Assembly (NCBI GenBank): GCA_023250585.1
Contig: JAHFAK010000044.1
Location: 1 to 16,630 of the forward strand
Direction: 5' to 3'
Length of the DNA: 16,630 bases
Source of the DNA: Deltaproteobacteria bacterium
GTDB taxonomy: Bacteria > Bdellovibrionota_F > JAHFAK01
The notes beneath the pieces were generated by a model. The model saw nothing but the letters and a program-made list of their open reading frames with translations, had not been told where the DNA came from and searched no databases. This document shows, piece after piece, positions 3,831 through 16,274 of the stretch (positions within the stretch are counted from its first letter, which is position 1; every line of letters begins with the position of its first letter). The position numbers and the translations under genes were made by a program.

Positions 3831-4277
3831 TTAGGTTTTGGTAATGCTTGCTTTGATTCGCTGTAATGTCCCTTCTATTTCAGGAAAAAAATCAATAATA
3901 ATATCATACATTTCTTTTCGTTCTTCAGGAATATATTCATGTGCTATTTTATTACGAAGATTACGGATGCCAATCCACTCGTCAACACTTCGAAGAATGA
4001 TACCTCGCTTTTCCATGCGAAGGAGAATATCACGGATGCTTCCTTCTGAAATACCATCAACGTACATCTCAAAACTCCGGAAGCATTTTGCTATACATAT
4101 CTCTACTGTTCTTTCAAACCGACTCGAAAGAGCATCATATGGTTCAAGCTCCTCCGGTGAATAACTTCTACTGGGATCAAATGGCTGTATACGATGTATT
4201 GAATCAGCAAGCAATACAAATGCCTTCTCTGTTTTTTCAATATTTTCTTGTACGAGTGAAAATTGTTTATTCATCAT
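3831..4277 (-). CDS. hepT: HepT-like HEPN-domain toxin (RNase)
   Basis: This 148-residue, all-helical protein has the HEPN active-site signature RNKIAHEY at residues 108-115, that is R-x4-H-x-Y. In studied HepT/MntA pairs, Arg and His form the RNase centre and the Tyr is AMPylated by the partner MntA, which silences the toxin. Here Arg108, His113 and Tyr115 are all present, so the toxin looks intact. The gene overlaps the upstream mntA by 11 nt (4267-4277), implying coupled translation. Initiation at either of the two adjacent ATGs is possible. Its stop is only 4 nt from the tRNA-Ala 5' end. HepT toxins are reported to act on tRNA or mRNA; any link to this tRNA is inference. Confidence 0.9.
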   Translation of the reverse strand: MMNKQFSLVQENIEKTEKAFVLLADSIHRIQPFDPSRSYSPEELEPYDALSSRFERTVEICIAKCFRSFEMYVDGISEGSIRDILLRMEKRGIILRSVDEWIGIRNLRNKIAHEYIPEERKEMYDIIIDFFPEIEGTLQRIKASITKT

Positions 4278-4617
4278 GATACTCCCATAATTCTACAAGA
4301 TTTTCTTTAATCACCTCTATAAAAGGAATCTTCCCTTCTTGAAATTCAGCACGAGAAATAACTTTGGTATCAATTTTTTGATCATCGCTCTTTTTAATGA
4401 CACATGCTTCAAAGTCGAGGATTGTTTTCAATGTATTCTTCAAGACTTTTGGCTCATCTATAACAATAAGTATATCAACATCTCCTCCTCGTTTCCTCGG
4501 ATTGGTTCTCGACCCAAAAAGGTAGGCTTTTGCTCCTTTGAACGGAAAGCACCTCTCTAATGCATTAACTATCGCTTCTCGTACTTCAGGTGATAATCGA
4601 ATCTGTTTCTGCTCCAT
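4267..4617 (-). CDS. mntA: MntA-like nucleotidyltransferase antitoxin
   Basis: This is a minimal nucleotidyltransferase of 116 residues. The catalytic strand carries GSRTNPRKRGGDVDI (35-49), matching G-S-x9-D-x-D with metal-binding Asp46 and Asp48. MntA antitoxins transfer AMP from ATP to the tyrosine of the R-x4-H-x-Y motif of the cognate HEPN toxin. The gene comes first in the pair and overlaps hepT by 11 nt, the usual antitoxin-first order. The ATG is 10 nt from a plausible -10 box, so the transcript would be nearly leaderless. I see no helix-turn-helix domain, so self-regulation by this protein alone is not evident. Confidence 0.9.
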   Translation of the reverse strand: MEQKQIRLSPEVREAIVNALERCFPFKGAKAYLFGSRTNPRKRGGDVDILIVIDEPKVLKNTLKTILDFEACVIKKSDDQKIDTKVISRAEFQEGKIPFIEVIKENLVELWEYHDE

Positions 4618-5089: not shown

Positions 5090-6484
5090 ATGAAGGAAGA
5101 TTTTACCATCCATAATTTATTTTGGAAAAGTCCTGAAGAATTTTTACGCTATGACCCTCATTTATCCAAACTATCTGAACTTTCTCTGATATATCATTCT
5201 CCATTGATTAAAGAAATTTCCGATGCAGGCCATGGAATCTATATCTTAACGGGAGGAAGGCAAGTCGGTAAATCAACACTCCTTAAATTACTGATCAAAA
5301 AGATATTAAATGAACGGAAGCTACAACCGAAGCACATTTACTATCTTCCCTGTGATACTATTCTTGATTTTAAAGGCCTCTTATTTGAGATTGAACAGTT
5401 TTGCAATCCGAAAAATAATAGTGAACCCTTTATGCTCATTTTGGATGAAATTTCGTATGTTACTGAATGGGAGAGAGGGATTAAAAGTTTGGCAGATTCT
5501 GGATTGTTTACACAAGGAATGGTCATCATTACGGGATCAGACACTTATTTATTGAAAAAAGCAATGATGGCGTTTCCGGGAAGACGGGGAAAAGCAGATA
5601 AGCACGATTTTCATCTCCATCCTCTTTCCTTTCATGAATATGTTGAACTCAAAGATAGCACGCTTCATTCTGCGTTACAGGATACTCGTGAAGAATTTCA
5701 TGAGAACTGCACTATTACACGAAACCGAGAGGAACATGCATATGGCAAACTACAGAAACTCTTTAATGAGTATCTACTGTGCGGCGGATATCTACGGGCA
5801 ATCAACGATTATGCAAAAGATAAAAGCATACATTCTGCAACCTATAATACCTATATTCAATGGATTATTGGGGATATATTAAAACGAGGGAAAAGCGAAA
5901 ATTACTTGCATGAGATAATAAAAACATTAATTCCTCGGATTGCTAGCCAAATTACCTGGAATGATTTTGCTTCAAAATTATCAATCGAGCATCATCAAAC
6001 CGTTATTGATTATATTGATATCCTTACTCGTATGGATATTGTCGTTGTTTTACAGGCATTAATAGAAAATAAATTAGAAGGTGCTCCAAAAAAAGCAAAA
6101 AAAGTTCACTTCTTTGATCCATTTATTTTTCATTCTTTACATGGCTGGGTTATGAGTACAAAAGAACCATACACATTATCGGATAAAGTCTTAAAAAGTA
6201 ATTCTCATGTACACAACGCATTGATTGAAGGTATAGTTGCTTCACTTTTTCATCGAAACAATAAAATTTTTTACATCAAAGCAGAAAAAGAAGTTGATAT
6301 TGTTCTTATAAAGAATAATGCTTTTTTCCCTATTGAGATAAAAAATTCTCTCTCCATTGATAAAAAAGAAATTAAGCAGATACTCAAATATAAAAAAGGT
6401 ATTGTTGGCTATGAAGGAACTACGATCAATACCCTTGATACGATTACTCTCATGCCAATTCCACTACTCGCTTATTGTGCATAA
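5090..6484 (+). CDS. AAA_14/DUF4143-type ATPase with PD-(D/E)XK-like C-terminus
   Basis: This 464-residue protein has a P-loop ATPase domain at the N-terminus: Walker A LTGGRQVGKST (53-63), Walker B FMLILDE (114-120) and sensor VIITGSD (145-151). The middle region contains LSFHEYVEL (179-187), typical of the AAA_14 plus DUF4143 architecture. Near the C-terminus, EVDIVLI with Asp403 followed by IEIK with Glu416 and Lys418 matches the D...E-x-K core of PD-(D/E)XK nucleases, as is usual in this family. Such ATPases are abundant in bacteria and archaea, often near toxin-antitoxin genes, but their role is poorly known. The gene stands alone after a MITE-like element and has no visible Shine-Dalgarno. 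Confidence 0.9.
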   Translation: MKEDFTIHNLFWKSPEEFLRYDPHLSKLSELSLIYHSPLIKEISDAGHGIYILTGGRQVGKSTLLKLLIKKILNERKLQPKHIYYLPCDTILDFKGLLFEIEQFCNPKNNSEPFMLILDEISYVTEWERGIKSLADSGLFTQGMVIITGSDTYLLKKAMMAFPGRRGKADKHDFHLHPLSFHEYVELKDSTLHSALQDTREEFHENCTITRNREEHAYGKLQKLFNEYLLCGGYLRAINDYAKDKSIHSATYNTYIQWIIGDILKRGKSENYLHEIIKTLIPRIASQITWNDFASKLSIEHHQTVIDYIDILTRMDIVVVLQALIENKLEGAPKKAKKVHFFDPFIFHSLHGWVMSTKEPYTLSDKVLKSNSHVHNALIEGIVASLFHRNNKIFYIKAEKEVDIVLIKNNAFFPIEIKNSLSIDKKEIKQILKYKKGIVGYEGTTINTLDTITLMPIPLLAYCA

Positions 6485-6594: not shown

Positions 6595-7512
6595 CTAAAA
6601 CACTTGAGCACATGGCGAATTAGCTGGTACTGATTTATTTTTCGCAATAATTGATCTTAACCATTCAAGTCCTGCTGTTTTATACTTAGAAATAGTCTTC
6701 TGAGTAATGCCCAATCCTGATTCAATATCTTGAAAACTCTTTCCTTCTATAAACAGCATCCGCAGTACTGTCGCCTGTTGCTTCGATAATTGACCTAGCA
6801 ACTCCTCATTATTCCTTACTAATGATCCATCCGGATCAGCAAGCTCTCGTAACCGTTCAAGCCCTGCTGTCTTATGCTGAGAAACAGTATGCTGAACAAT
6901 GCCCAATTCTGATTCAATATCTTGAGGACTCTTACCTTCGATAAACAGCATCCGTAGTACTTTCGCCTGCTGCTTCGATAATTGACTGAGCAACTCCTCA
7001 TTATTCCTTACTAATGATCCATCTGGATCAGCAAGCTCTCGTAACCGTTCAAGCCCTGCTGTCTTATGCTGAGAAACAGTATGCTGAACAATGCCCAATT
7101 CTGATTCAATATCTTGAGGACTCTTTCCTTCGATAAACAGCATCCGTAGTACTTTCGCCTGCTGCTTCGATAATTGACTGAGCAACTCCTCATTATTCCT
7201 TACTAATGATCCATCTGGATCAGCAAGCTCTCGTAACCGTTCAAGCCCTGCTGTCTTATGCTGAGAAATAGTCTTCTGAGTAATGCCCAATCCTGATTCA
7301 ATATCTTGAGGACTCTTTCCTTCAAGATAGAGCTTTCGCAGCACTGTCGCCTGTTGCTTCGGTAATTGACCAAGCAACTCCTCATTGCTTTCAACAAATT
7401 TTCTTTCGCTTTCTTTTTGTTCTGCTAAAGTCTTGGCATAGCTAACAGACGATCCTGATAACAGTATACCTATAATGAATAGTACTGAATAGAAAAGTTT
7501 AGTATGTTTCAT
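6595..7512 (-). CDS. Predicted exported protein with four sigma-70 region-4-like HTH repeats
   Basis: The 305-residue protein starts with a clear Sec signal peptide (MKHTK, a hydrophobic core near 7-20, likely cleavage after SYA at 24-26). Four units with an exact 64-residue period follow, starting at residues 43, 107, 171 and 235. Each contains LSKQQAKVLRMLFIEGKS, then QDIESELGI, then a recognition-helix-like TVSQHKTAGLERLREL. This pattern matches region 4 of sigma factors (L-x-Q-x-V-L...EI-x-LGI...TV-x-x-x-x-x-x-L-x-x-L-R). The fourth unit is truncated and followed by a Cys-containing tail (CAQVF). A strong GGAGGG (7523-7518) sits 5 nt before the ATG, which fixes the start. A DNA-binding fold on an exported protein is contradictory, so its true function is unknown. 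It may bind nucleic acid outside the cytoplasm or the repeats may serve as a scaffold. Confidence 0.85.
   Translation of the reverse strand: MKHTKLFYSVLFIIGILLSGSSVSYAKTLAEQKESERKFVESNEELLGQLPKQQATVLRKLYLEGKSPQDIESGLGITQKTISQHKTAGLERLRELADPDGSLVRNNEELLSQLSKQQAKVLRMLFIEGKSPQDIESELGIVQHTVSQHKTAGLERLRELADPDGSLVRNNEELLSQLSKQQAKVLRMLFIEGKSPQDIESELGIVQHTVSQHKTAGLERLRELADPDGSLVRNNEELLGQLSKQQATVLRMLFIEGKSFQDIESGLGITQKTISKYKTAGLEWLRSIIAKNKSVPANSPCAQVF
6643..7386 (-). repeat. Tandem 192-bp coding repeats (four units)
   Basis: Units occupy 7386-7195, 7194-7003, 7002-6811 and 6810-6643 (the last partial). Units 2 and 3 differ at only about two of 192 positions by eye, whereas units 1 and 4 are more diverged. 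This implies a recent duplication or gene conversion of the middle unit. The repeats keep frame, so copy number can change without breaking the protein. Confidence 0.95.
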
Positions 7513-7517
7513 TGCTA

Positions 7518-7561
7518 CCCTCCATGATATCTTTCTCTATCATAATGATTTAATATGTCAA
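7518..7561 (-). promoter_or_regulatory. Putative promoter and strong RBS of the HTH-repeat gene
   Basis: On the minus strand TTGACA (7561-7556) is followed after 16 bp by TAGAGA (7539-7534), preceded by TGA, an extended -10. GGAGGG (7523-7518) is among the best Shine-Dalgarno sequences in the window and lies 5 nt from the ATG. The strong RBS contrasts with the nearly leaderless starts of several neighbouring genes. Confidence 0.5.
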
Positions 7562-7612: not shown

Positions 7613-7643
7613 GTCATCCTGCGGCTTGACCGCGGGATCCAGT
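7613..7643. repeat. Single copy of the GC-rich palindromic repeat
   Basis: GTCATCCTGCGGCTTGACC followed by GCGGGATCCAGT is nearly identical to the copy at 59-89, with one arm base changed (CCTGCGG for CCCGCGG). It lies in the 388-bp gene-free stretch 7513-7901, between the HTH-repeat gene and a second palindromic element. Confidence 0.85.
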
Positions 7644-7653
7644 AATCATAGTA

Positions 7654-7776
7654 ATACTAAGTTGCATTCAAACGCTAACTGCGTTGGCTTCGTCGTCGGC
7701 TCCTCAACGTACTATTACGTACGTTTGCGTCGCCTTCTCCTTGCCGACGTTTATCATTTTGAATGCAACTTAGTAT
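7654..7776. repeat. Long palindromic element with 19-bp terminal inverted repeats
   Basis: ATACTAAGTTGCATTCAAA (7654-7672) and TTTGAATGCAACTTAGTAT (7758-7776) are perfect inverted repeats around 85 bp. Inner arms CGTCGGC (7694-7700)/GCCGACG (7743-7749) and the ACGTAC...GTACGT core near 7708-7724 extend the fold. The interior is more GC-rich than its surroundings and contains no plausible gene. This looks like a small dispersed palindromic or MITE-like element. Confidence 0.75.
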
Positions 7777-7901
7777 GATACCTTTTGATGGAAAGCCGAC
7801 AGTTAACTTTTCGTTAAAAAAAAGACGCAGAAAAAGCTTTAAATATTGCTGAAAAGATATATTCTTTTGTTGTATCAAAAATGAAAAGGAATCTAATACT
7901 T

Positions 7902-8243
7902 ATGAATACAAAAGAAAATTTAGCCCAAAAACAATGTGAGCCATGCGAAGGAATTGGAAAATCACTAACTGAAGAAGAAGCACGCAAGTATATTAAACAA
8001 GTTAATGATTGGAAAATCTCTCCAAATAAGAAGTCAATCTATCGAGAATGTACCTTCAAAAATTTTATGGCCGCAATTTCGTTTATTAATCACATTGCAG
8101 ATCTTGCAGAACACGAGGGGCATCATCCCGATCTTCATCTGACGAATTATAAATCCTTGCGCATCGAACTTACGACCCATGCCCTCAATGGCCTTTCGAA
8201 AAACGACTTTATCTTAGCGGCAAAGATTAATGAGATATGTTAA
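7902..8243 (+). CDS. phhB: Pterin-4a-carbinolamine dehydratase
   Basis: The product matches the small PCD/DCoH family (about 100 residues). It has the N-terminal CEPCEG box (12-17 from this start), a DWK segment (36-38), and the hallmark AEHEGHHPDLHL (69-80) with the active-site His cluster, followed by ELTTHALNGLSKNDFILAAKI. The enzyme dehydrates 4a-hydroxytetrahydropterin, recycling the cofactor of aromatic amino acid hydroxylases; many bacteria carry it without an obvious hydroxylase, and none is seen here. I chose ATG 7902 because AAAGGA (7885-7890) precedes it and it fits family length. An upstream in-frame ATG at 7881 is possible. The stop overlaps the convergent MNT gene by 4 bp. Confidence 0.93.
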   Translation: MNTKENLAQKQCEPCEGIGKSLTEEEARKYIKQVNDWKISPNKKSIYRECTFKNFMAAISFINHIADLAEHEGHHPDLHLTNYKSLRIELTTHALNGLSKNDFILAAKINEIC

Positions 8244-8587
8244 GAATTTCTGTAAGCAGGTTTGATTATTTTTCCATGAGTTTTTATTTCATGAATGAGT
8301 GTGCTAAACCGATCATTAAGGTCTCGGGGATTCAAAGGAATGGGTTCTAACTTTGAGTCTATGTGTAATGCAAGTTTGCGAAGAAGGACTAATTCCTTGA
8401 AGTTATTATTTCCAAATTGAGAAGAAATAACTGCAAGATCAATATCACTATCAGTATGTGATTTTTCTTGAGCAAATGATCCAAAAAGAATTGTTTTATC
8501 AACCGTAATACCTTCTCTTTCAAGAAGTTTAATAAAATCTTGAATTTTTTTTTGTATTACCTTTTTTATGCGTGCTTTTTTAGCCAT
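8240..8587 (-). CDS. MNT-type nucleotidyltransferase, partner of the upstream HEPN protein
   Basis: This 115-residue protein is a minimal nucleotidyltransferase with GSFAQEKSHTDSDIDLAV (36-53). That fits G-S-x10-D-x-D, with Asp48 and Asp50 as metal ligands. A basic, lysine-rich helix precedes it (MAKKARIKKVIQKK). It overlaps the HEPN gene by 22 nt and is second in the pair, the reverse of the mntA-hepT order at 3831-4617. It probably acts as antitoxin by modifying or binding the HEPN partner. Its stop codon overlaps that of the convergent phhB gene, with no room for a separate terminator. Confidence 0.88.
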   Translation of the reverse strand: MAKKARIKKVIQKKIQDFIKLLEREGITVDKTILFGSFAQEKSHTDSDIDLAVISSQFGNNNFKELVLLRKLALHIDSKLEPIPLNPRDLNDRFSTLIHEIKTHGKIIKPAYRNS

Positions 8588-8952
8588 ACAAGAATTTCCT
8601 TTGTTTCATTGAGGTATTTTTGGGTAAATGAACGAGTAGCCTTTTTATAAAAGCTTAATTTATAATCATCATAACGGGTTTTAATATTAAATGAAGTTAT
8701 TTCAATCAAGCTATGTTTCAAATCTATGGACAATGGAATTCCTGCTTTTTCCGCAAGCCGAATAAGATCATGAGTAAATGGAGGAGCGCTTTCAGTATTT
8801 TTCACAATAATCGCTTTTAGATATTTTTCAACACTAAGGTGACAAAAAAATAGGGAATAATGAAATTTTTTGTTCTTAAATAACGATTTGGCGACCTCAT
8901 AATCTTGCTCAGATGAATGAATCCAATAGCGAATAACCTCTTCTCGCTTCAT
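8566..8952 (-). CDS. HEPN domain protein (COG2250-like), putative toxin
   Basis: The 128-residue helical protein follows the COG2250/PF05168 pattern. It has SSEQDYEVAKSLF near 13-25, then FFCHLSVEKYLKAIIV (35-50), THDLIRLAEKAGI (60-72) and a C-terminal KTRYDDY (91-97). The canonical R-x4-6-H of RNase-active HEPN proteins is not obvious, as is common in this subfamily. RNase activity therefore cannot be assumed. It is the first gene of a two-gene unit and its 3' end overlaps the MNT gene by 22 nt. It belongs to a different subfamily from the HepT at 3831-4277. No convincing promoter or Shine-Dalgarno was found upstream. Confidence 0.85.
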   Translation of the reverse strand: MKREEVIRYWIHSSEQDYEVAKSLFKNKKFHYSLFFCHLSVEKYLKAIIVKNTESAPPFTHDLIRLAEKAGIPLSIDLKHSLIEITSFNIKTRYDDYKLSFYKKATRSFTQKYLNETKEILVWLKKHA

Positions 8953-9066: not shown

Positions 9067-12000
9067 ATGAAAAGGATTATCGTCATAAGTATCTTTGGAT
9101 GTTTTGTATTATCCATTTATGGATACGCCCTCGACTGTGCACAATTATTCATTACTCCTACAGGGGAATCATGGAAGGTAGAAAGACTCGTCTACAGTCC
9201 GGGAGGGATACAGAACGCAGGCTTTACGGACTCTAATGGCAATCCAATTACAAAAGATTTTTTTGGAAACTACCCTCATTGGATCTATGTTATAAAAAAT
9301 AATGATTCTCTAGAGATTCGTTATTATGGTCCTCAAGATATAATTCGGGAATTTCCGGGGCATCAAAGCGAGATTGACTCTTTACGAAAATCAAAAAAAG
9401 AGGAACTCGAAATCTATCAAGAAAAATCCCGTCATATTAATACTGCTCGACGGGTGTTCGGATTAGCATTGATAGAAGAAAAGAGCATAGGAGATCGACA
9501 CTATACTGAAATCGATCAAGCCTATAAAGAAACCCACAATATGCTCTCTCTTCTATCACAAGAAGTAACCCTCGAAGCATTTACCGGTATACTCGGAAAT
9601 CTTTCCAAGCTTGGTAATTACTTACAAAAAAAGAAGCTTTCGAGTATTTCTGAGGATACGAGAATAAAGCTTATTGCAGTTTTAGAGAAAATCAAGGAAG
9701 GAAAAGCACTGACTCATGATGAAATACAATTTCTCATTCGACTCCATGAAGATATTATTACGTATCTTGAAGCTCATGATTTTAGTAAAGAGCGTTTGAG
9801 TTGGGGGCGTCGCCATGCTGTTTCCGAAGATACACTCTATCGCGCAAAGACTCCTGCATATCATGCCAATGTGTGGATTGCACATTGGATTCTCAAGAAT
9901 TTTGCCTCACGACTTCATGAGCTAACGATCATCGATATTGGAGCAAATAGCAGTATTTTATTTCAAGTTATGAATGAACTTAATCCTCGAGTTGCTCAAA
10001 ATATTATTGATTTTGAAAAGGATCCTGAAATCTATCGTGGAGCTCCTAATTCAATGAAAGTGCGAGGAGATATAGGAATCCTTGATGAGAAAACTCATTT
10101 ACCCAGAATAGAAGAAGCATCTGATGATTTAGCGGAACAATTTGTATCGACTCCTCATAATTTTGACATAGCAATAGCAAGCTTTATCTATGAACAGCTT
10201 GAACCACGTGAAGTTCGTTCATCACTTATTGCATTGGAGAATCTTTTAAGAGAACCAAAGGAAGGCGATGAACCACCAATTCTTATAATTGCATTGCCTG
10301 AGCATTCGCCGCTTATTGGATCAAACCTTGATCGAATACTGACGAACAATGGCTATACACCGATACTCGTCGAGGCACTGAAAAAAGTATCGTTAACACA
10401 GGAAGCAAAGGAACGAATAAGAAATGACCATGGTAATGAAGCACTTTCAATCCTTGAAGAAGCAGTGGACAAGGCATTTCATATAGGGGTCTATAGAAAA
10501 GAAGAATCTGCAGATAGTACAAAACTTGAAAAAATTAAGGTATCGGAATTAACGATACGTGAAAAGGTATCGAGTCCGAAGAAAAATGGAAAGCCACAAG
10601 AGGAAAGAAAAGTCGAATTTACTATTGAAAAGCTCAGGAATCTTGATTTACTTGCAGGTCTAAAAGCAGCTGACTTTACAACTGAAGCAGAGGGCGATGG
10701 TATCTCTATCCGAAGTCTTGTGAGTGATCCCGTCTATGCTGATTTTGAAGCACGACTTGCCTCTCTCGAGTATTTTCGTGGTCATCTCACGAGGGCTGAT
10801 CAAACGATGCTCGATTCAATGGTAACACTACTCAAAAACCAAAACACAACCTATCTTACACAGACTCAGGTAAATTTTGTCATGAATAAGCCTACTGAAA
10901 TCACACTCAAATATAGTCAGGCAATAGAGGCATCAACACCTATTCAACGAAAATTACAATTTGACTATGACCAAGCATATAAAGACCGTCGATCCGAAAT
11001 TATTACCGAAGTATCTGAAGGCAGAGAATCTGCTGCCATTGCTAAGCTAGGACGAGAGCTCAAGAACAAAGCCTATTCGCTATGGCAGCTCTTTGAAATT
11101 GAAGAAGAATATCGTATGAAGCATGATCAGGCAAGTCTTGTAGATGAAGTACGCAAGAAGTTTTCATCGTATGATTTTTCGGCAATTGAAGTTGGTGAGA
11201 TAGAGACATTCATCGATTCTGAAACAGGGGCTTTGCAGATTATTATTGATAATTATGGAAAAGGATTTAGAGAAAACAACGGAGCACGGTTAAGTCTCGA
11301 GGCATTAATTGAGCACTATGATTCAACGACGAGAAAAGATCTACAAGAAGTGATGAATCAACAAGAATTTAAAGCTAGGGATGGGGATACTATTAAATCA
11401 GGAATTTCGCATAATGGCTTTAAAGGACCATTTTATCGGTATTATCTCATGTGGCGGAGGATTTTGAAGGCCGCACGAGAAAAAAACCCCTCGATAGATC
11501 CATCGAAATGGTATGAACGAAAAACAGCAGAACTACTTTTAGAGCACCTTGGTGTTGAACCATCAATTGAAAAATTAGTAACCGAATATAGAGCACAGAT
11601 AGATCAATTCCTTAATCCTGAAACCGGGGCTTTGCAGATTATTATTAATAATTATAGAAAAGGATTTACGACAAACAACGGAGCAAGGTTAAGCCTCAAG
11701 GCATTAATTGAGCACTATGATTCAACGACGAGAAAAGATCTACAAGAAGTGATGAATCAACAAGAATTTAAAGCTACGGATGGGAATATTATTAAATCAG
11801 GAATTTCGCATAGTGGCTTTAAAGGACCATTTTATCGGTATTATCTCATGTGGAGGAGGATTTTGAAGGCTGCACGAGAGAAAGATCCCTCGATAGATCC
11901 ATCGAAATGGTATGAACAAAAAACAGCAGAACAACTTTTGAAGCACCTTGGTTTTGAATTATCAATAGAGCGATTAATCGAAAAACATACGGCACAGATC

Positions 12001-12366
12001 AATCAATTCCTCGATCCTAAAATGGGGTCACTGCAGATTATTATTGATAATTATGGAAAAGGATTTGCAGCAAACAACGGAGCAAGGTTAAGCCTCAAGG
12101 CATTAATTGAGCACTATGATTCAACGACGAGAAAAGATCTACAAGAAGTGATGAATCAACAAGAATTTAAAGCTGCGGATGGGAATACTATTAAATCAGG
12201 AATTTCGCATAGTGGCTTTAAAGGACCATTTTATCGGTATTATCTCATGTGGAGGAGGATTTTAAAAGCTGCACATGAATTTGATCCGTCTATCAATCCT
12301 GATGAATGGCACACACGAGAGACTGCAGAAAAATTACTTATGTACCTTAAGGCTCAACGGAAATAA
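9067..12366 (+). CDS. Exported multidomain protein: methyltransferase-like domain plus three 133-aa repeats
   Basis: The 1099-residue protein starts with a signal peptide (MKRIIVIS, hydrophobic to about residue 19, likely cleavage after GYA). Residues 95-245 are mostly charged helix. Residues 270-435 resemble a class I SAM methyltransferase: TIIDIGANSSILF (287-299) as motif I, IIDFEKDP (313-320) after strand 2, VRGDIGIL (332-339), and FDIAIASFIYEQL (366-378) as motif IV. The glycine-rich loop is degenerate, so catalysis is uncertain. A helical linker (480-710) leads to three 133-residue repeats from residues 712, 845 and 978, each with EHYDSTTRKDLQEVMNQQEF and FKGPFYRYYLMWRRILKAA. I do not recognise the repeat family. 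Its role is unknown, but it is probably periplasmic, surface-bound or released. Confidence 0.85.
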   Translation: MKRIIVISIFGCFVLSIYGYALDCAQLFITPTGESWKVERLVYSPGGIQNAGFTDSNGNPITKDFFGNYPHWIYVIKNNDSLEIRYYGPQDIIREFPGHQSEIDSLRKSKKEELEIYQEKSRHINTARRVFGLALIEEKSIGDRHYTEIDQAYKETHNMLSLLSQEVTLEAFTGILGNLSKLGNYLQKKKLSSISEDTRIKLIAVLEKIKEGKALTHDEIQFLIRLHEDIITYLEAHDFSKERLSWGRRHAVSEDTLYRAKTPAYHANVWIAHWILKNFASRLHELTIIDIGANSSILFQVMNELNPRVAQNIIDFEKDPEIYRGAPNSMKVRGDIGILDEKTHLPRIEEASDDLAEQFVSTPHNFDIAIASFIYEQLEPREVRSSLIALENLLREPKEGDEPPILIIALPEHSPLIGSNLDRILTNNGYTPILVEALKKVSLTQEAKERIRNDHGNEALSILEEAVDKAFHIGVYRKEESADSTKLEKIKVSELTIREKVSSPKKNGKPQEERKVEFTIEKLRNLDLLAGLKAADFTTEAEGDGISIRSLVSDPVYADFEARLASLEYFRGHLTRADQTMLDSMVTLLKNQNTTYLTQTQVNFVMNKPTEITLKYSQAIEASTPIQRKLQFDYDQAYKDRRSEIITEVSEGRESAAIAKLGRELKNKAYSLWQLFEIEEEYRMKHDQASLVDEVRKKFSSYDFSAIEVGEIETFIDSETGALQIIIDNYGKGFRENNGARLSLEALIEHYDSTTRKDLQEVMNQQEFKARDGDTIKSGISHNGFKGPFYRYYLMWRRILKAAREKNPSIDPSKWYERKTAELLLEHLGVEPSIEKLVTEYRAQIDQFLNPETGALQIIINNYRKGFTTNNGARLSLKALIEHYDSTTRKDLQEVMNQQEFKATDGNIIKSGISHSGFKGPFYRYYLMWRRILKAAREKDPSIDPSKWYEQKTAEQLLKHLGFELSIERLIEKHTAQINQFLDPKMGSLQIIIDNYGKGFAANNGARLSLKALIEHYDSTTRKDLQEVMNQQEFKAADGNTIKSGISHSGFKGPFYRYYLMWRRILKAAHEFDPSINPDEWHTRETAEKLLMYLKAQRK
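11200..12363 (+). repeat. Three tandem 399-bp coding repeats
   Basis: Units begin at 11200, 11599 and 11998 and keep an exact 399-bp period. A 75-nt core is identical by eye in all three (11302-11376, 11701-11775, 12100-12174), and the following GGCTTTAAAGGACCATTTTA block is also identical. Third codon positions are unchanged in these cores, which points to recent duplication or ongoing gene conversion. The unit ends are more diverged, and the third unit has its own C-terminus. Confidence 0.95.
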
Positions 12367-12370
12367 GAGT

Positions 12371-13531
12371 TTAAAGAGCTCGACGTTCTATAATAACTTT
12401 AAATTGTTCTGATTCACTATCGTTAATAAATTGAATATGAGGATAATGTTTTAAAGCTCGTAGGATTCCTAAGCCAACCCCTCGATAGGGAATCATTTTT
12501 GACATGACCGATGTGAGGATTGGATTACGAATTATAGAGACACCATGGGTGATATTTTCAACAGTTAAAGCATTCGGTAATTTACCGGGGTTAATTATCT
12601 CGATACGATTATCAAGAATAAAAATTCGAATCGGTGCACTGATATAATAATCACGATGAAGGTACGCATTAGTAAGTATTTCCTCAAAAACAATGCGTGG
12701 AATTTCGAGTTCACCTTCGGTGTTGATACCTTGGCCTTTCTGGATTTTTCGAATATTACGTAATATAAAACTCATCATTTCCTGATATTGAAATACCAGT
12801 GTTCCTTTGGCGTCTCTACTTTCAATATATTCATCGGTTGTTACATCATTTCCTTTAAAACACATACCTTTGGTAATGAATTGCGGATAGAATTTTTGAG
12901 GATTGTTAGCAAAAAGCATAATACCGCTGAATCGAAGATGAGGCGGTTCTGCGAGCTTTATATTTTTAAGAATCTGATCACAAGATCCGTCAACTTCATC
13001 AAAATCAATTTCATAATTTTTTTTATAAAAATTCTTAAAGGCTTCAAAATTGATATCATTGAGTGTCGATTCATTACACACGTGCTCATCAGCATACATT
13101 TTTCCCGATTCTTGAAAGAGTCTCTGCAACTCTTCTTCGGAAATTCTTCGCTTGTCAGCTCCATACCTTTTTACATATATCCCTTTATTTGTTGAATAAG
13201 GTTTACTTGAACCCTCTTTAAGGAAAATTACAACAAGTTTTTTATCCTCAATATCATAAACTTTGGTAAGAGGATTAATCGGAGGTTTGATTTTAGTCAT
13301 AACCGTATTAGAAATCAGTTGATTTAATTTACGTATCTCATCAGGAGATAAACCCATTAATTTTCCTGAATCATTAACACCAACAATAATAATTCCTCCA
13401 TGCGCGTTTGAAAATGCAACAAGTTCTTCCGCAAGTTTTTCTTCATTAATAATTTTTTCCTTTAATTGGGTAAAACTATCCTCTCCGCGCCGGATTCTTT
13501 CGAGTATTTCTTTGGATTCCATAGTAAACAT
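12371..13531 (-). CDS. AlbA_2 (Schlafen-like)/RecG-like ATP-binding protein
   Basis: The 386-residue product has an N-terminal AlbA_2 domain (PF04326 type): SFTQLKEKI (19-27) in the place of the usual EFKE motif and AFSNAHGGIIIVGVND (39-54). A C-terminal GHKL ATPase-like part (HATPase_c_4 type) follows, with FEEILTNAYLHRDY as N-box and RIEIINPGKLP after it. Proteins of this type are often annotated as RecG-related or transcriptional regulators, but the activity is usually unknown. A longer frame opens with TTG at 13567, but that TTG is the first half of a good -35 box. I prefer ATG 13531, with ATG 13522 as an alternative. It converges on the large exported-protein gene with a 4-bp gap. Confidence 0.88.
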   Translation of the reverse strand: MFTMESKEILERIRRGEDSFTQLKEKIINEEKLAEELVAFSNAHGGIIIVGVNDSGKLMGLSPDEIRKLNQLISNTVMTKIKPPINPLTKVYDIEDKKLVVIFLKEGSSKPYSTNKGIYVKRYGADKRRISEEELQRLFQESGKMYADEHVCNESTLNDINFEAFKNFYKKNYEIDFDEVDGSCDQILKNIKLAEPPHLRFSGIMLFANNPQKFYPQFITKGMCFKGNDVTTDEYIESRDAKGTLVFQYQEMMSFILRNIRKIQKGQGINTEGELEIPRIVFEEILTNAYLHRDYYISAPIRIFILDNRIEIINPGKLPNALTVENITHGVSIIRNPILTSVMSKMIPYRGVGLGILRALKHYPHIQFINDSESEQFKVIIERRAL

Positions 13532-13538
13532 GTGCGTT

Positions 13539-13567
13539 ACTATAGGGGTAATCCAATTTTGGGTCAA
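13539..13567 (-). promoter_or_regulatory. Promoter of the AlbA_2 gene, nearly leaderless
   Basis: On the minus strand TTGACC (13567-13562), a 17-bp spacer and TATAGT (13544-13539) form a near-consensus promoter. ATG 13531 is 7 nt past the -10 box, about where transcription should start, and no Shine-Dalgarno is present. A leaderless mRNA is therefore likely. Confidence 0.6.
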
Positions 13568-13617: not shown

Positions 13618-14451
13618 ATGCGGAAAATGAAACAATTCAAATGCATTCTCACTATTGTTATTGTCTTTTGCCTTTTTGTGGTGAACGATGTACATGCCCT
13701 GTGTAACGATATGTTTGGATTACCTCCTACAGGCAAATTGACACAATTCGAAGAAATATTTACGCATCTCTATAAACGTTACGGTTCTCGTGGCTGGTGG
13801 CCGCTCTTTAGCGAAGATTCACAAGCGCCGAAATATATTCCAGGAAATTATGGGAAGAAATCGGAAAATGAACAATTAGAAATTATTGTCGGATCAATAC
13901 TTACTCAAAATACTTCCTGGAAAAATGCAGAAACAGCCCTTGTAAATCTCAATACACAAAAGCTTTTGAGGATTGAAGAACTTTCCAAAATAAGTGAAGA
14001 AGAACTTGCCGATGTTATTCGTCCTTCACGATTTAGTAAACAAAAAGCAAAAACAATTAAGGGAATTGTCAAATTTCTTGAGAACGAATCTCTCGAAGCA
14101 TTGGAGCAATTATCGATTCCCGAATTACGTAAAAAACTTTTGGCGCTCTATGGCATTGGAAATGAAACAGCGGATTCAATAATTCTTTATGCCTTTAACG
14201 GGCTGAGCTTTGTGATCGATGCTTATACAAAACGAATTTTCTCACGGGTTGGGCTTATAGAGGAATCCATCTCTTATACTAATCTACAAAATGAAATTAC
14301 AAAAAATATTCCACAAAACGGAGCACTTTATAATGAATATCATGCTCTTATTGTTGCCCTGGCACAGGATCATTGCACAAAAAAACCGACATGTTCTCTC
14401 TGTCCGATTAAAAATCTCTGTACAACAGGATCGTGTGTGCCTCATTTTTGA
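13618..14451 (+). CDS. MagIII/EndoIII-like DNA glycosylase with N-terminal signal peptide
   Basis: The 277-residue product contains a complete HhH-GPD glycosylase of the COG2231 (endonuclease III-related, MagIII) type. It has WWPL (60-63), SILTQNTSW (93-101), the hairpin LYGIGNETADSI (177-188) and the catalytic Asp201 in FVIDAYTKR. Four Cys (253, 259, 262, 268; C-x5-C-x2-C-x5-C) should bind a 4Fe-4S cluster. EndoIII's catalytic Lys is replaced by Glu183, which predicts a monofunctional glycosylase. In front lies an added segment: MRKMK, a hydrophobic stretch (9-22), and likely cleavage after VHA, followed by LCNDMFGLPPTGKL. An exported repair enzyme is unexpected. A misjudged start is unlikely, because the next in-frame Met (31) would remove the signal but leave PPTGKL unexplained. 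Either ATG 13618 or ATG 13627 keeps the signal. Confidence 0.92.
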   Translation: MRKMKQFKCILTIVIVFCLFVVNDVHALCNDMFGLPPTGKLTQFEEIFTHLYKRYGSRGWWPLFSEDSQAPKYIPGNYGKKSENEQLEIIVGSILTQNTSWKNAETALVNLNTQKLLRIEELSKISEEELADVIRPSRFSKQKAKTIKGIVKFLENESLEALEQLSIPELRKKLLALYGIGNETADSIILYAFNGLSFVIDAYTKRIFSRVGLIEESISYTNLQNEITKNIPQNGALYNEYHALIVALAQDHCTKKPTCSLCPIKNLCTTGSCVPHF

Positions 14452-15257: not shown

Positions 15258-15300
15258 TTGACTTATTTCCATATATATGGAATAATCTATATATATGGAA
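15258..15300 (+). promoter_or_regulatory. Promoter-operator of the wHTH-MNT/HEPN pair; leaderless start
   Basis: TTGACT (15258-15263) and AATAAT (15281-15286, with TGG before it) are 17 bp apart. The perfect 16-bp palindrome TTCCATATATATGGAA (15267-15282) fills the spacer. A second half-site, ATATATATGGAA (15289-15300), repeats 18 bp downstream and contains the start codon itself. The ATG (15295) is 8 nt past the -10, so it should be at or near +1. The winged-helix domain of the first gene is the likely repressor. Confidence 0.65.
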
Positions 15301-15834
15301 ATTATAAAAAATGTAATCTTTTCGACTCCACTGTTACGAGTATTAGATGTTCTTTTGCAGCATTCAAATCAAGAGCTAAACGATACTGAAATTATACAAA
15401 AGGTTACGGGAGCTAAGAGAGCTGCAATTCATCGTGCACTTCAGAAGCTTGCAGATTTTCACATAACCGAGAGAGTACATAAGGGTAGACGCTGTTATAA
15501 TCAAATCGACCTCGACAATACATGGCTTTTACCGTTTAAAATAGCACTGAATATTCTCGAAATATCTCCACTCGTGAATAGAATTAAGAAACTTTCCATT
15601 AAGATTATTCTTTTTGGAAGTAGGTCACAGGGAACAAATTGTCATGATAGTGATTTTGATCTCTTGATAATCAGCTCAAAGAAAGATCTCATCATACGAG
15701 AAATAAATAGAGTTGACGAGAGTCATCGAATACAACCGATAATAAAAACACCTGAGGAAATACTGAATGTAGAAAAAAATGATCCTGTATTTTTTAAAGA
15801 AGTACATCGAGGAGTTATTGTATGGGAAAAATAG
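15295..15834 (+). CDS. Winged-helix MNT nucleotidyltransferase, putative autoregulating antitoxin
   Basis: This 179-residue protein fuses two parts. Residues 1-75 form a winged helix-turn-helix (VLDVLLQHSNQELNDTEI, then RAAIHRALQKLADFHI, then a basic wing VHKGRRCY). Residues 100-179 form a minimal nucleotidyltransferase with GSRSQGTNCHDSDFDLLI (108-125; G-S-x10-D-x-D, Asp120 and Asp122). The fusion suggests an antitoxin that both modifies or binds its HEPN partner and represses its own promoter. It overlaps the HEPN gene by 13 nt. The ATG lies close to the promoter and has no Shine-Dalgarno. Confidence 0.9.
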   Translation: MEIIKNVIFSTPLLRVLDVLLQHSNQELNDTEIIQKVTGAKRAAIHRALQKLADFHITERVHKGRRCYNQIDLDNTWLLPFKIALNILEISPLVNRIKKLSIKIILFGSRSQGTNCHDSDFDLLIISSKKDLIIREINRVDESHRIQPIIKTPEEILNVEKNDPVFFKEVHRGVIVWEK

Positions 15835-16274
15835 AACTGGAATTCGAGAAATGTCTTTCGAAAGGACAGATTAAAGCCTTTAGTGACGGACCAAAACTTG
15901 TGGGTAAACAACTCAAAATAGCTGAAGGAGATTTGGCGGAAGCTCAAGAAGGACTCACCCGTAAGAAATGGAAATGGTCTACGATTCAAGCCTATTATTC
16001 AATGTTTCATACAGCACGAGCGCTTCTTTACGCCAAAGGCTTCAGGGAGCATCATCATCGCTGTTTACGAATTGCAATTTCTCATCTCTATGTATCTGAA
16101 GATACAGCATTTCATGCATTAGTTTCAGATTTTCAACTTGCTAAAATGATGCGCGAGAATGCGGATTACGCCGATGATTTTTCAGAGAATGGGGCGAATA
16201 AACTCGTTAGTTCAGCAGAACGTTTCTTAAAAATCGTTCGGAAAATTTTAAGAAGACCAATCCAGATTATATAA
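15822..16274 (+). CDS. HEPN domain protein (COG1895-like), putative toxin
   Basis: The 150-residue helical protein follows the COG1895 HEPN pattern. It has AEGDLAEAQEGL (34-45), then the helix AYYSMFHTARALLYAKGF (57-74), then a His-rich turn REHHHR (75-80), and finally MMRENADYADDF (109-120), where this subfamily usually has R-x-x-A-D-Y. A strict R-x4-6-H RNase motif is not clear. It is second in the operon, overlaps the antitoxin-like gene by 13 nt and ends with no visible terminator. It is the third HEPN protein in the window and of a third subfamily. Confidence 0.87.
   Translation: MGKIELEFEKCLSKGQIKAFSDGPKLVGKQLKIAEGDLAEAQEGLTRKKWKWSTIQAYYSMFHTARALLYAKGFREHHHRCLRIAISHLYVSEDTAFHALVSDFQLAKMMRENADYADDFSENGANKLVSSAERFLKIVRKILRRPIQII

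What the first reader, a model, noticed from the sequence alone, without database searches (positions are those of the whole stretch)
6595..7512. Exported protein made of four sigma-70 region-4-like HTH repeats
Seen: a clear signal peptide, then four in-frame 64-residue units that each resemble the -35-recognising HTH of sigma factors. Known: sigma region 4 works on RNA polymerase in the cytoplasm and is normally present once. Inference: the units have been reused, either as an extracytoplasmic nucleic-acid-binding array or as a repeat scaffold delivered into another cell.
Basis: partly seen in the sequence, partly recalled or inferred. Interest (0 to 1): 0.72.

Follow-up and report, generated by a model that had tools for sequence, protein, structure and literature searches.

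The report
Exported four-unit sigma-4-like HTH array
A bacterium from a sparsely sampled phylum encodes a protein with a secretion signal followed by four copies of the small DNA-reading domain normally found once in sigma factors, and it appears to belong to a group of normally cytoplasmic proteins that this genome exports with a shared short end-tag, which may be a new protein-sorting signal.

Summary
On the minus strand, 7512-6595 is a 305-aa ORF with a GGAGG ribosome-binding site 6 nt before its ATG, a classical Sec signal peptide (VSYA|K), and four in-frame 64-aa units. Each unit passes the Pfam cut-off for sigma-70 region 4. One unit folds at pLDDT 90, and its best PDB matches are region 4 of ECF-type sigma factors. 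The array is a 192-bp tandem repeat; units 2 and 3 differ by two silent bases. No comparable tandem protein was found in about 780 other genomes, plasmids or viral contigs. New here: the last five residues, CAQVF (the protein's only Cys), match a motif C-x(1,2)-[VILM]-F. In a 40% sample of this genome that motif lies just after the signal peptide (16 of 179; 1.2 expected) or at the exact C-terminus (3; 0.02 expected) of exported proteins. Carriers include cytosolic-type enzymes: DNA glycosylase, methyltransferase, threonine aldolase, proline dehydrogenase, dipeptidase, diacylglycerol kinase. The protein is best read as one of a cohort of Sec-exported, end-tagged, cytosol-type proteins, whose HTH array probably binds DNA outside the producer's cytoplasm. 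Export, fold and tag enrichment rest on sequence; DNA binding and destination are inferred. The organism could not be named.

The parts
6595..7512 (-). ORF P0001, 305 aa: signal peptide plus four sigma-70 region-4-like HTH units plus C-terminal CAQVF
7519..7523 (-). Shine-Dalgarno GGAGG, 6 nt before the ATG
   Evidence: upstream sequence ...ATCATGGAGGGTAGCA|ATG
7435..7512 (-). Sec signal peptide, residues 1-26 (n-region KHTK, hydrophobic core LFYSVLFIIGILL, cleavage VSYA|K)
   Evidence: rule-based
7213..7404 (-). HTH unit 1, residues 37-100
   Evidence: AF2 model
7021..7212 (-). HTH unit 2, residues 101-164
6829..7020 (-). HTH unit 3, residues 165-228; two synonymous differences from unit 2
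6637..6828 (-). HTH unit 4, residues 229-292, most divergent
6598..6612 (-). C-terminal CAQVF (residues 301-305, only Cys of the protein), match to the cohort motif C-x(1,2)-[VILM]-F
9067..12366 (+). P0003, exported 1099-aa cohort neighbour: signal peptide, CAQLF just after it, three C-terminal units of about 130 aa (399-bp repeats); methyltransferase-like middle part by eye only
13618..14451 (+). P0002, exported cohort neighbour: signal peptide plus CNDMF leader of about 42 aa in front of a HhH-GPD DNA glycosylase whose homologues elsewhere lack the leader

Best explanation
P0001 is a genuine Sec-exported protein made of four tandem tetrahelical HTH domains of the sigma-70 region 4 (ECF-like) type, built up by repeated 192-bp in-frame duplication. 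It belongs to a cohort of otherwise unrelated, cytosol-type proteins that this bacterium exports with a signal peptide and a short terminal tag C-x(1,2)-[VILM]-F, usually just after the cleavage site and, in P0001 and two other ORFs, at the very C-terminus. Proposed working: Sec moves it across the inner membrane, the tag serves a second sorting or anchoring step (cell surface, vesicle, or another cell), and the four HTH units bind double-stranded DNA multivalently outside the producer's own cytoplasm. Supported by sequence: signal peptide, ribosome-binding site, fold and repeat number, motif enrichment. Inferred: that the motif is a sorting tag, that the HTHs bind DNA, and where.
For: ORF, ribosome-binding site and signal peptide. 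Each unit above Pfam cut-offs; unit model matches sigma region 4. Identical or conservative units: 2 versus 3 differ by two synonymous bases, dN/dS about 0.4 for unit 1 versus 2 (weak). Tag: 16 of 179 signal-peptide ORFs in 893 kb of this genome carry the motif within 30 residues after the hydrophobic core, against 1.16 (maximum 5) in 300 shuffles; 3 end exactly in it, against 0.023 (maximum 1); 0 of 581 other ORFs end in it. It was noticed in contigs C1-C34 and then recurred in C35-C56 (3 N-terminal hits; about 0.1 expected with the slightly wider pattern used there) and C57-C77 (5; 0.12 expected). Only 1-2 hits, none convincing, in the one same-class genome and 40 other genomes (1 of 43 and 1 of 88 signal-peptide ORFs). 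Carriers are mostly non-homologous and include cytosol-type domains. P0002's homologues elsewhere start after the leader.
Against: P0001 bears the motif at the C-terminus, not in the common N-terminal position, and this was noticed after the fact; only three C-terminal cases are known. Some of the 16 N-terminal hits are poor (L033:4782 and L088:2014 look like lipoproteins or membrane proteins; L026:6351 uncertain). The mature protein is nearly neutral (pI 6.6), and residues that contact the -35 element in primary sigma factors are not kept (own reading). The signal peptide was judged by a home-made rule. No homologue exists to show conservation of the architecture.
Confidence: 0.4

Rival explanations
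1. Injected effector: P0001 and the other tagged cytosol-type proteins pass through the envelope and act in the cytosol of another cell (host, prey or neighbour), where the HTH array binds that cell's DNA or transcription machinery. This is a stronger form of the best explanation.
For: The tagged cohort needs cytosolic substrates or cofactors: threonine aldolase with its PLP lysine motif kept (SKGLGAPVGS), proline dehydrogenase, diacylglycerol-kinase domain, methyltransferase, DNA glycosylase with a C-X5-C-X2-C-X5-C cluster. These would be of little use in a periplasm.
Against: No secretion machinery or host was identified. The organism and its lifestyle are unknown. Sec export followed by entry into another cell is uncommon.
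Confidence: 0.22
2. Extracytoplasmic helical scaffold: the region-4 fold is kept only as a stable, easily duplicated helical brick for protein contacts or spacing; no DNA is bound. Region 4 binds proteins too (beta-flap, anti-sigma factors).
For: Near-neutral charge. The primary-sigma DNA-contact arginines are replaced. Long-period tandem arrays in this genome sit almost only in exported ORFs (5 of 6 ORFs).
Against: Surface positions of the recognition helix remain polar and are similar between units (Q-K/H-T-I/V-S-Q/K-H/Y-K). Own-genome RpoH region 4 is equally neutral.
Confidence: 0.25
3. Recent, functionally empty chimera: a signal peptide joined by chance to a region-4 fragment and then amplified by neutral tandem duplication.
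For: Orphan in all searches. Units 2 and 3 are almost identical in DNA. dN/dS between older units is only mildly below 1 (0.41-0.85). MITE-like repeats and toxin-antitoxin-type genes nearby.
Against: Good ribosome-binding site, an intact 306-codon frame, conserved HTH core in all four units, and a C-terminal motif shared with two other exported ORFs.
Confidence: 0.1
4. Cytoplasmic or membrane-tethered regulator: the N-terminal hydrophobic stretch is an uncleaved anchor with the HTHs inside, so an ordinary DNA-binding regulator.
For: HTH domains normally act in the cytoplasm; membrane-bound HTH regulators exist (own knowledge: CadC/ToxR type, with the opposite order of domains).
Against: Hydrophobic core of about 13 residues and an A-x-A type site fit a cleaved signal peptide; the positive n-region predicts N-in/C-out, putting the HTHs outside. 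The end motif matches exported proteins and not the 581 other ORFs.
Confidence: 0.05

Closest known systems
Sigma-70 region 4 (Pfam PF08281 Sigma70_r4_2 / PF04545 Sigma70_r4), ECF-type
   Same: Each 64-aa unit is this domain by profile and by predicted fold.
   Different: Four copies in tandem, no region 2, behind a signal peptide; not a sigma factor. The genome has its own RpoD, an RpoH-like and an ECF sigma factor.
LuxR/GerE-type HTH (PF00196; e.g. EvgA)
   Same: Related HTH; units match it too.
   Different: Scores lower than region 4 (5.3e-25 against 4.2e-32), and the top structural matches are sigma domains.
Exported DNA-binding surface proteins, e.g. C. difficile lipoprotein CD1687 (PMC10175255) and S. 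aureus IsaB (PMC2670837)
   Same: Precedent, by their titles and abstracts, for exported bacterial proteins that bind nucleic acid outside the cell; a functional analogy only.
   Different: Not compared in sequence; nothing indicates that they carry sigma region-4 repeats.
Terminal sorting tags of exported bacterial proteins (PEP-CTERM, GlyGly-CTERM, type IX C-terminal domain; own knowledge)
   Same: Short or modular terminal signal shared by non-homologous exported proteins.
   Different: Motif here is C-x(1,2)-[VILM]-F, found at either end, without the hydrophobic helix and basic tail of the CTERM tags.

Membership tests
Sigma-70 family sigma factor | Region 4 HTH domain | tested here: met
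   All four units above PF08281 and PF04545 cut-offs; fold match
Sigma-70 family sigma factor | Region 2 (-10 recognition, core RNA polymerase binding) | tested here: not met
   No sigma-70 region 2 family in the Pfam scan of P0001; the sequence outside the units is signal peptide, linker and a short tail
Sigma-70 family sigma factor | Acts in the cytoplasm (no export signal) | tested here: not met
   Signal peptide with its own ribosome-binding site; rule-based, no SignalP
Tagged export cohort of this genome (proposed here) | Sec signal peptide | tested here: met
Tagged export cohort of this genome (proposed here) | C-x(1,2)-[VILM]-F at the mature N-terminus or exact C-terminus | tested here: met
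   CAQVF at residues 301-305; C-terminal version, as in L051:5469-7277 and L081:1283-1567
Tagged export cohort of this genome (proposed here) | The motif acts as a sorting signal | not testable with these tools
   needs reporter fusions
Extracytoplasmic DNA-binding protein | Binds DNA outside the cytoplasm | not testable with these tools
   fold is compatible; charge is neutral

The most novel reading that the evidence does not exclude
This lineage has an undescribed two-step export route: Sec signal peptide plus a C-x(1,2)-[VILM]-F tag placed at either end of the mature protein, which relocates intact cytosol-type enzymes and a four-unit sigma region-4 array out of the cell or into another cell, where the array works as a programmable-looking multi-HTH DNA binder.
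Probability: 0.22. Interest if true: 0.88.

Novelty: new variant of a known kind. Interest (0 to 1): 0.6.

Why it matters
Sigma region 4 is one of the best-known bacterial DNA-reading domains and is normally found once, inside a sigma factor, in the cytoplasm. A tandem, exported version would be a new use of it. The broader point is testable at once: a short motif shared by unrelated exported proteins that look like cytosolic enzymes suggests an unrecognised sorting signal in a poorly sampled phylum. If real, it would define a secretome that ordinary annotation files as 'cytoplasmic enzymes'.

Tried and rejected
(1) Homologues of P0001: own genome (single copy), 98 and 386 relatives, a further 392 genomes of another phylum and 2 more, species-genome contigs, viral contigs, plasmids: nothing tandem. 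The three weak hits are ordinary single-region-4 sigma factors. (2) Naming the organism through RecD2 in the species-genome collection: no match; only one other genome of its phylum is held. (3) AF2 of the whole protein as a single sequence: pLDDT 50, used only for secondary structure; unit 1 alone reached about 80. (4) Considered that the signal peptide was a mis-called start: rejected, ribosome-binding site at the ATG and no common start codon before TTG46. (5) Considered the cohort motif a lipobox: rejected for most members, which have an A-x-A type site 0-5 residues before the Cys and no [LVI]-x-[GA]-C; a few regex hits are probably lipoproteins and are named. (6) Considered that the motif is general in bacteria: 2 hits, neither convincing, among 131 signal-peptide ORFs of 41 other genomes, against 16 of 179 here (Fisher p = 0.006). 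(8) Paper searches gave no description of such a protein or tag.

Full report
Observation. The finding lies on the minus strand. The ORF 7512-6595 encodes 305 residues. A GGAGG sequence lies 6 nt before the ATG, and the next in-frame ATG/GTG/TTG codon, TTG46, lies inside the first unit, so the signal peptide MKHTKLFYSVLFIIGILLSGSSVSYA|K belongs to the gene. A rule-based check calls it a type I signal peptide; SignalP was not available. The rest is four 64-residue units and a short tail ending SVPANSPCAQVF. In DNA the units form a 192-bp tandem array of 3.8 copies with 92% match. Units 2 and 3 differ by two synonymous bases; the other pairs differ by 25-37 bases and 12-18 residues, with dN/dS of 0.33-0.85 in both directions of comparison, which is only weak evidence of selection.

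What the units are. Every unit on its own passes the curated cut-offs of PF08281 and PF04545. The whole protein scores 4.2e-32 and 2.5e-30, against 5.3e-25 for the LuxR-type GerE model. An AF2 model of unit 1, aligned with the other three, has mean pLDDT 90, though the other four AF2 models of that job were at 50-59. Its closest solved structures are region 4 of SigL, SigF, SigD, SigR and other sigma factors (TM to 0.80, rmsd about 1 A over 51-54 residues for the best rows). The fold claim therefore rests on three independent lines: profile, predicted structure, and the repeat of the pattern in all units. There is no region 2, so it is not a sigma factor. The genome has a normal RpoD, an RpoH-like sigma and an ECF sigma.

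Relatives. None was found. The protein is single-copy in its genome and absent, as a tandem array, from 386 genomes of its wider kin, from 392 genomes of another phylum, and from viral, plasmid and species-genome collections. The searches need exact 8-residue matches and are blunt; the profile searches are better. Only one other genome of the phylum is held, so the orphan status may reflect poor sampling.

The export cohort. Two neighbours in the window are also exported and also carry something unexpected. P0002 (13618-14451) is a HhH-GPD DNA glycosylase with a leader of about 42 residues (signal peptide, then LCNDMF). Its best homologues in other genomes start where the glycosylase starts and lack the leader. 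P0003 (9067-12366) has a signal peptide, then CAQLF, and three repeats of about 130 residues at its C-terminus. This led to a search for the motif C-x(1,2)-[VILM]-F in 893 kb of stretches from the same genome. Among 179 signal-peptide ORFs, 16 have it in the 30 residues after the hydrophobic core, against a mean of 1.16 and maximum of 5 in 300 shuffles. Three end exactly in it (P0001, L051:5469-7277, L081:1283-1567), against a mean of 0.023. None of 581 other ORFs ends in it. The motif was noticed in the first half of the sample and recurred in two later batches. In the same-class genome G001 and in 40 other genomes it is at background (2 of 131, neither convincing; Fisher p = 0.006). A few of the 16 look like lipoproteins or membrane proteins (L033:4782, L088:2014) and one is uncertain (L026:6351), so about 13 are convincing. 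A further carrier, the threonine aldolase L026:7378-8577 (CEHIF), falls outside the count because an acidic residue in its leader fails my signal-peptide rule.

What the cohort contains. Apart from one pair (L037/L084) the carriers show no homology to each other. Recognisable ones are cytosol-type: DNA glycosylase, HAD hydrolase, threonine aldolase with the PLP-lysine motif kept, peptidase E of family S51 with GTSAG kept, proline dehydrogenase, a methyltransferase and a diacylglycerol-kinase domain. The last of these carries the tag at its C-terminus (AACGRIF), like P0001. So P0001 is not an isolated oddity: it is one of a set of proteins whose domains normally work in a cytosol but which carry a signal peptide and a shared terminal motif. 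In P0001 the motif holds the only cysteine (residue 301).

How it probably works. Shown by sequence: coding frame, ribosome-binding site, signal peptide by rule, HTH fold, and motif enrichment. Inferred: Sec export; the motif as a signal for a second sorting or anchoring step; DNA binding by the HTH array; location outside the producer's cytoplasm. I put about 0.9 on export, 0.95 on the fold, 0.7 on the motif being functional in P0001, and 0.45 on DNA binding as the purpose of the array. The need of the cohort for PLP, flavin, ATP, SAM or an iron-sulphur cluster (family knowledge) argues that the destination has cytosol-like contents, which would favour delivery into another cell; but no machinery or host was identified.

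Against. The mature protein is nearly neutral (pI 6.6), and by my own alignment the arginines that read the -35 element in primary sigma factors are not kept. A structural scaffold is therefore a serious rival. The C-terminal motif in P0001 was noticed after the N-terminal one, and only three such cases are known. The signal-peptide rule is crude. The genome is a draft of 164 contigs and was sampled, not read whole.

Comparison and novelty. The domain is known; the architecture (signal peptide plus four region-4 units, no region 2) was not found elsewhere in these searches, and paper searches found no description. It works, at most, like exported DNA-binding surface proteins such as CD1687 (PMC10175255) and IsaB (PMC2670837), to which no sequence relation was tested. 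It is rated as a new variant of a known kind. The proposed tag is the more novel part and the easier one to test.

Noticed in passing
genome stretches L022-L104 and window 9067-12366, 13618-14451: C-x(1,2)-[VILM]-F motif just after the signal peptide (16 of 179) or at the exact C-terminus (3) of exported proteins of this genome, many with cytosol-type domains; possible undescribed sorting tag.
   Followed up: partly
window 13618-14451: DNA glycosylase (HhH-GPD, C-X5-C-X2-C-X5-C cluster) with an added signal-peptide leader that its homologues in other genomes lack.
   Followed up: partly
window 9067-12366: Exported 1099-aa orphan with three C-terminal units of about 130 aa (399-bp tandem repeat, 90% match); the region around residues 270-450 resembles a SAM methyltransferase by eye, no Pfam support.
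   Followed up: no
window 7640-7785: Palindromic, MITE-like intergenic element directly upstream of P0001: 42 matches, about 25 of them over 94% identical, across the genome.
   Followed up: partly
window 3831-4617, 8240-8952, 15295-16274: Three pairs of small genes that look like nucleotidyltransferase/HEPN toxin-antitoxin modules (by eye), plus an AAA_14 ATPase (5090-6484) and an AlbA_2 protein (12371-13567), within 16.6 kb.
   Followed up: no
L033:1559-4432, L047:3700-8973, L050:2499-4745: Long-period tandem repeats (108-402 bp) in this genome lie almost only in exported ORFs (5 of 6 ORFs, the window's two included).
   Followed up: no
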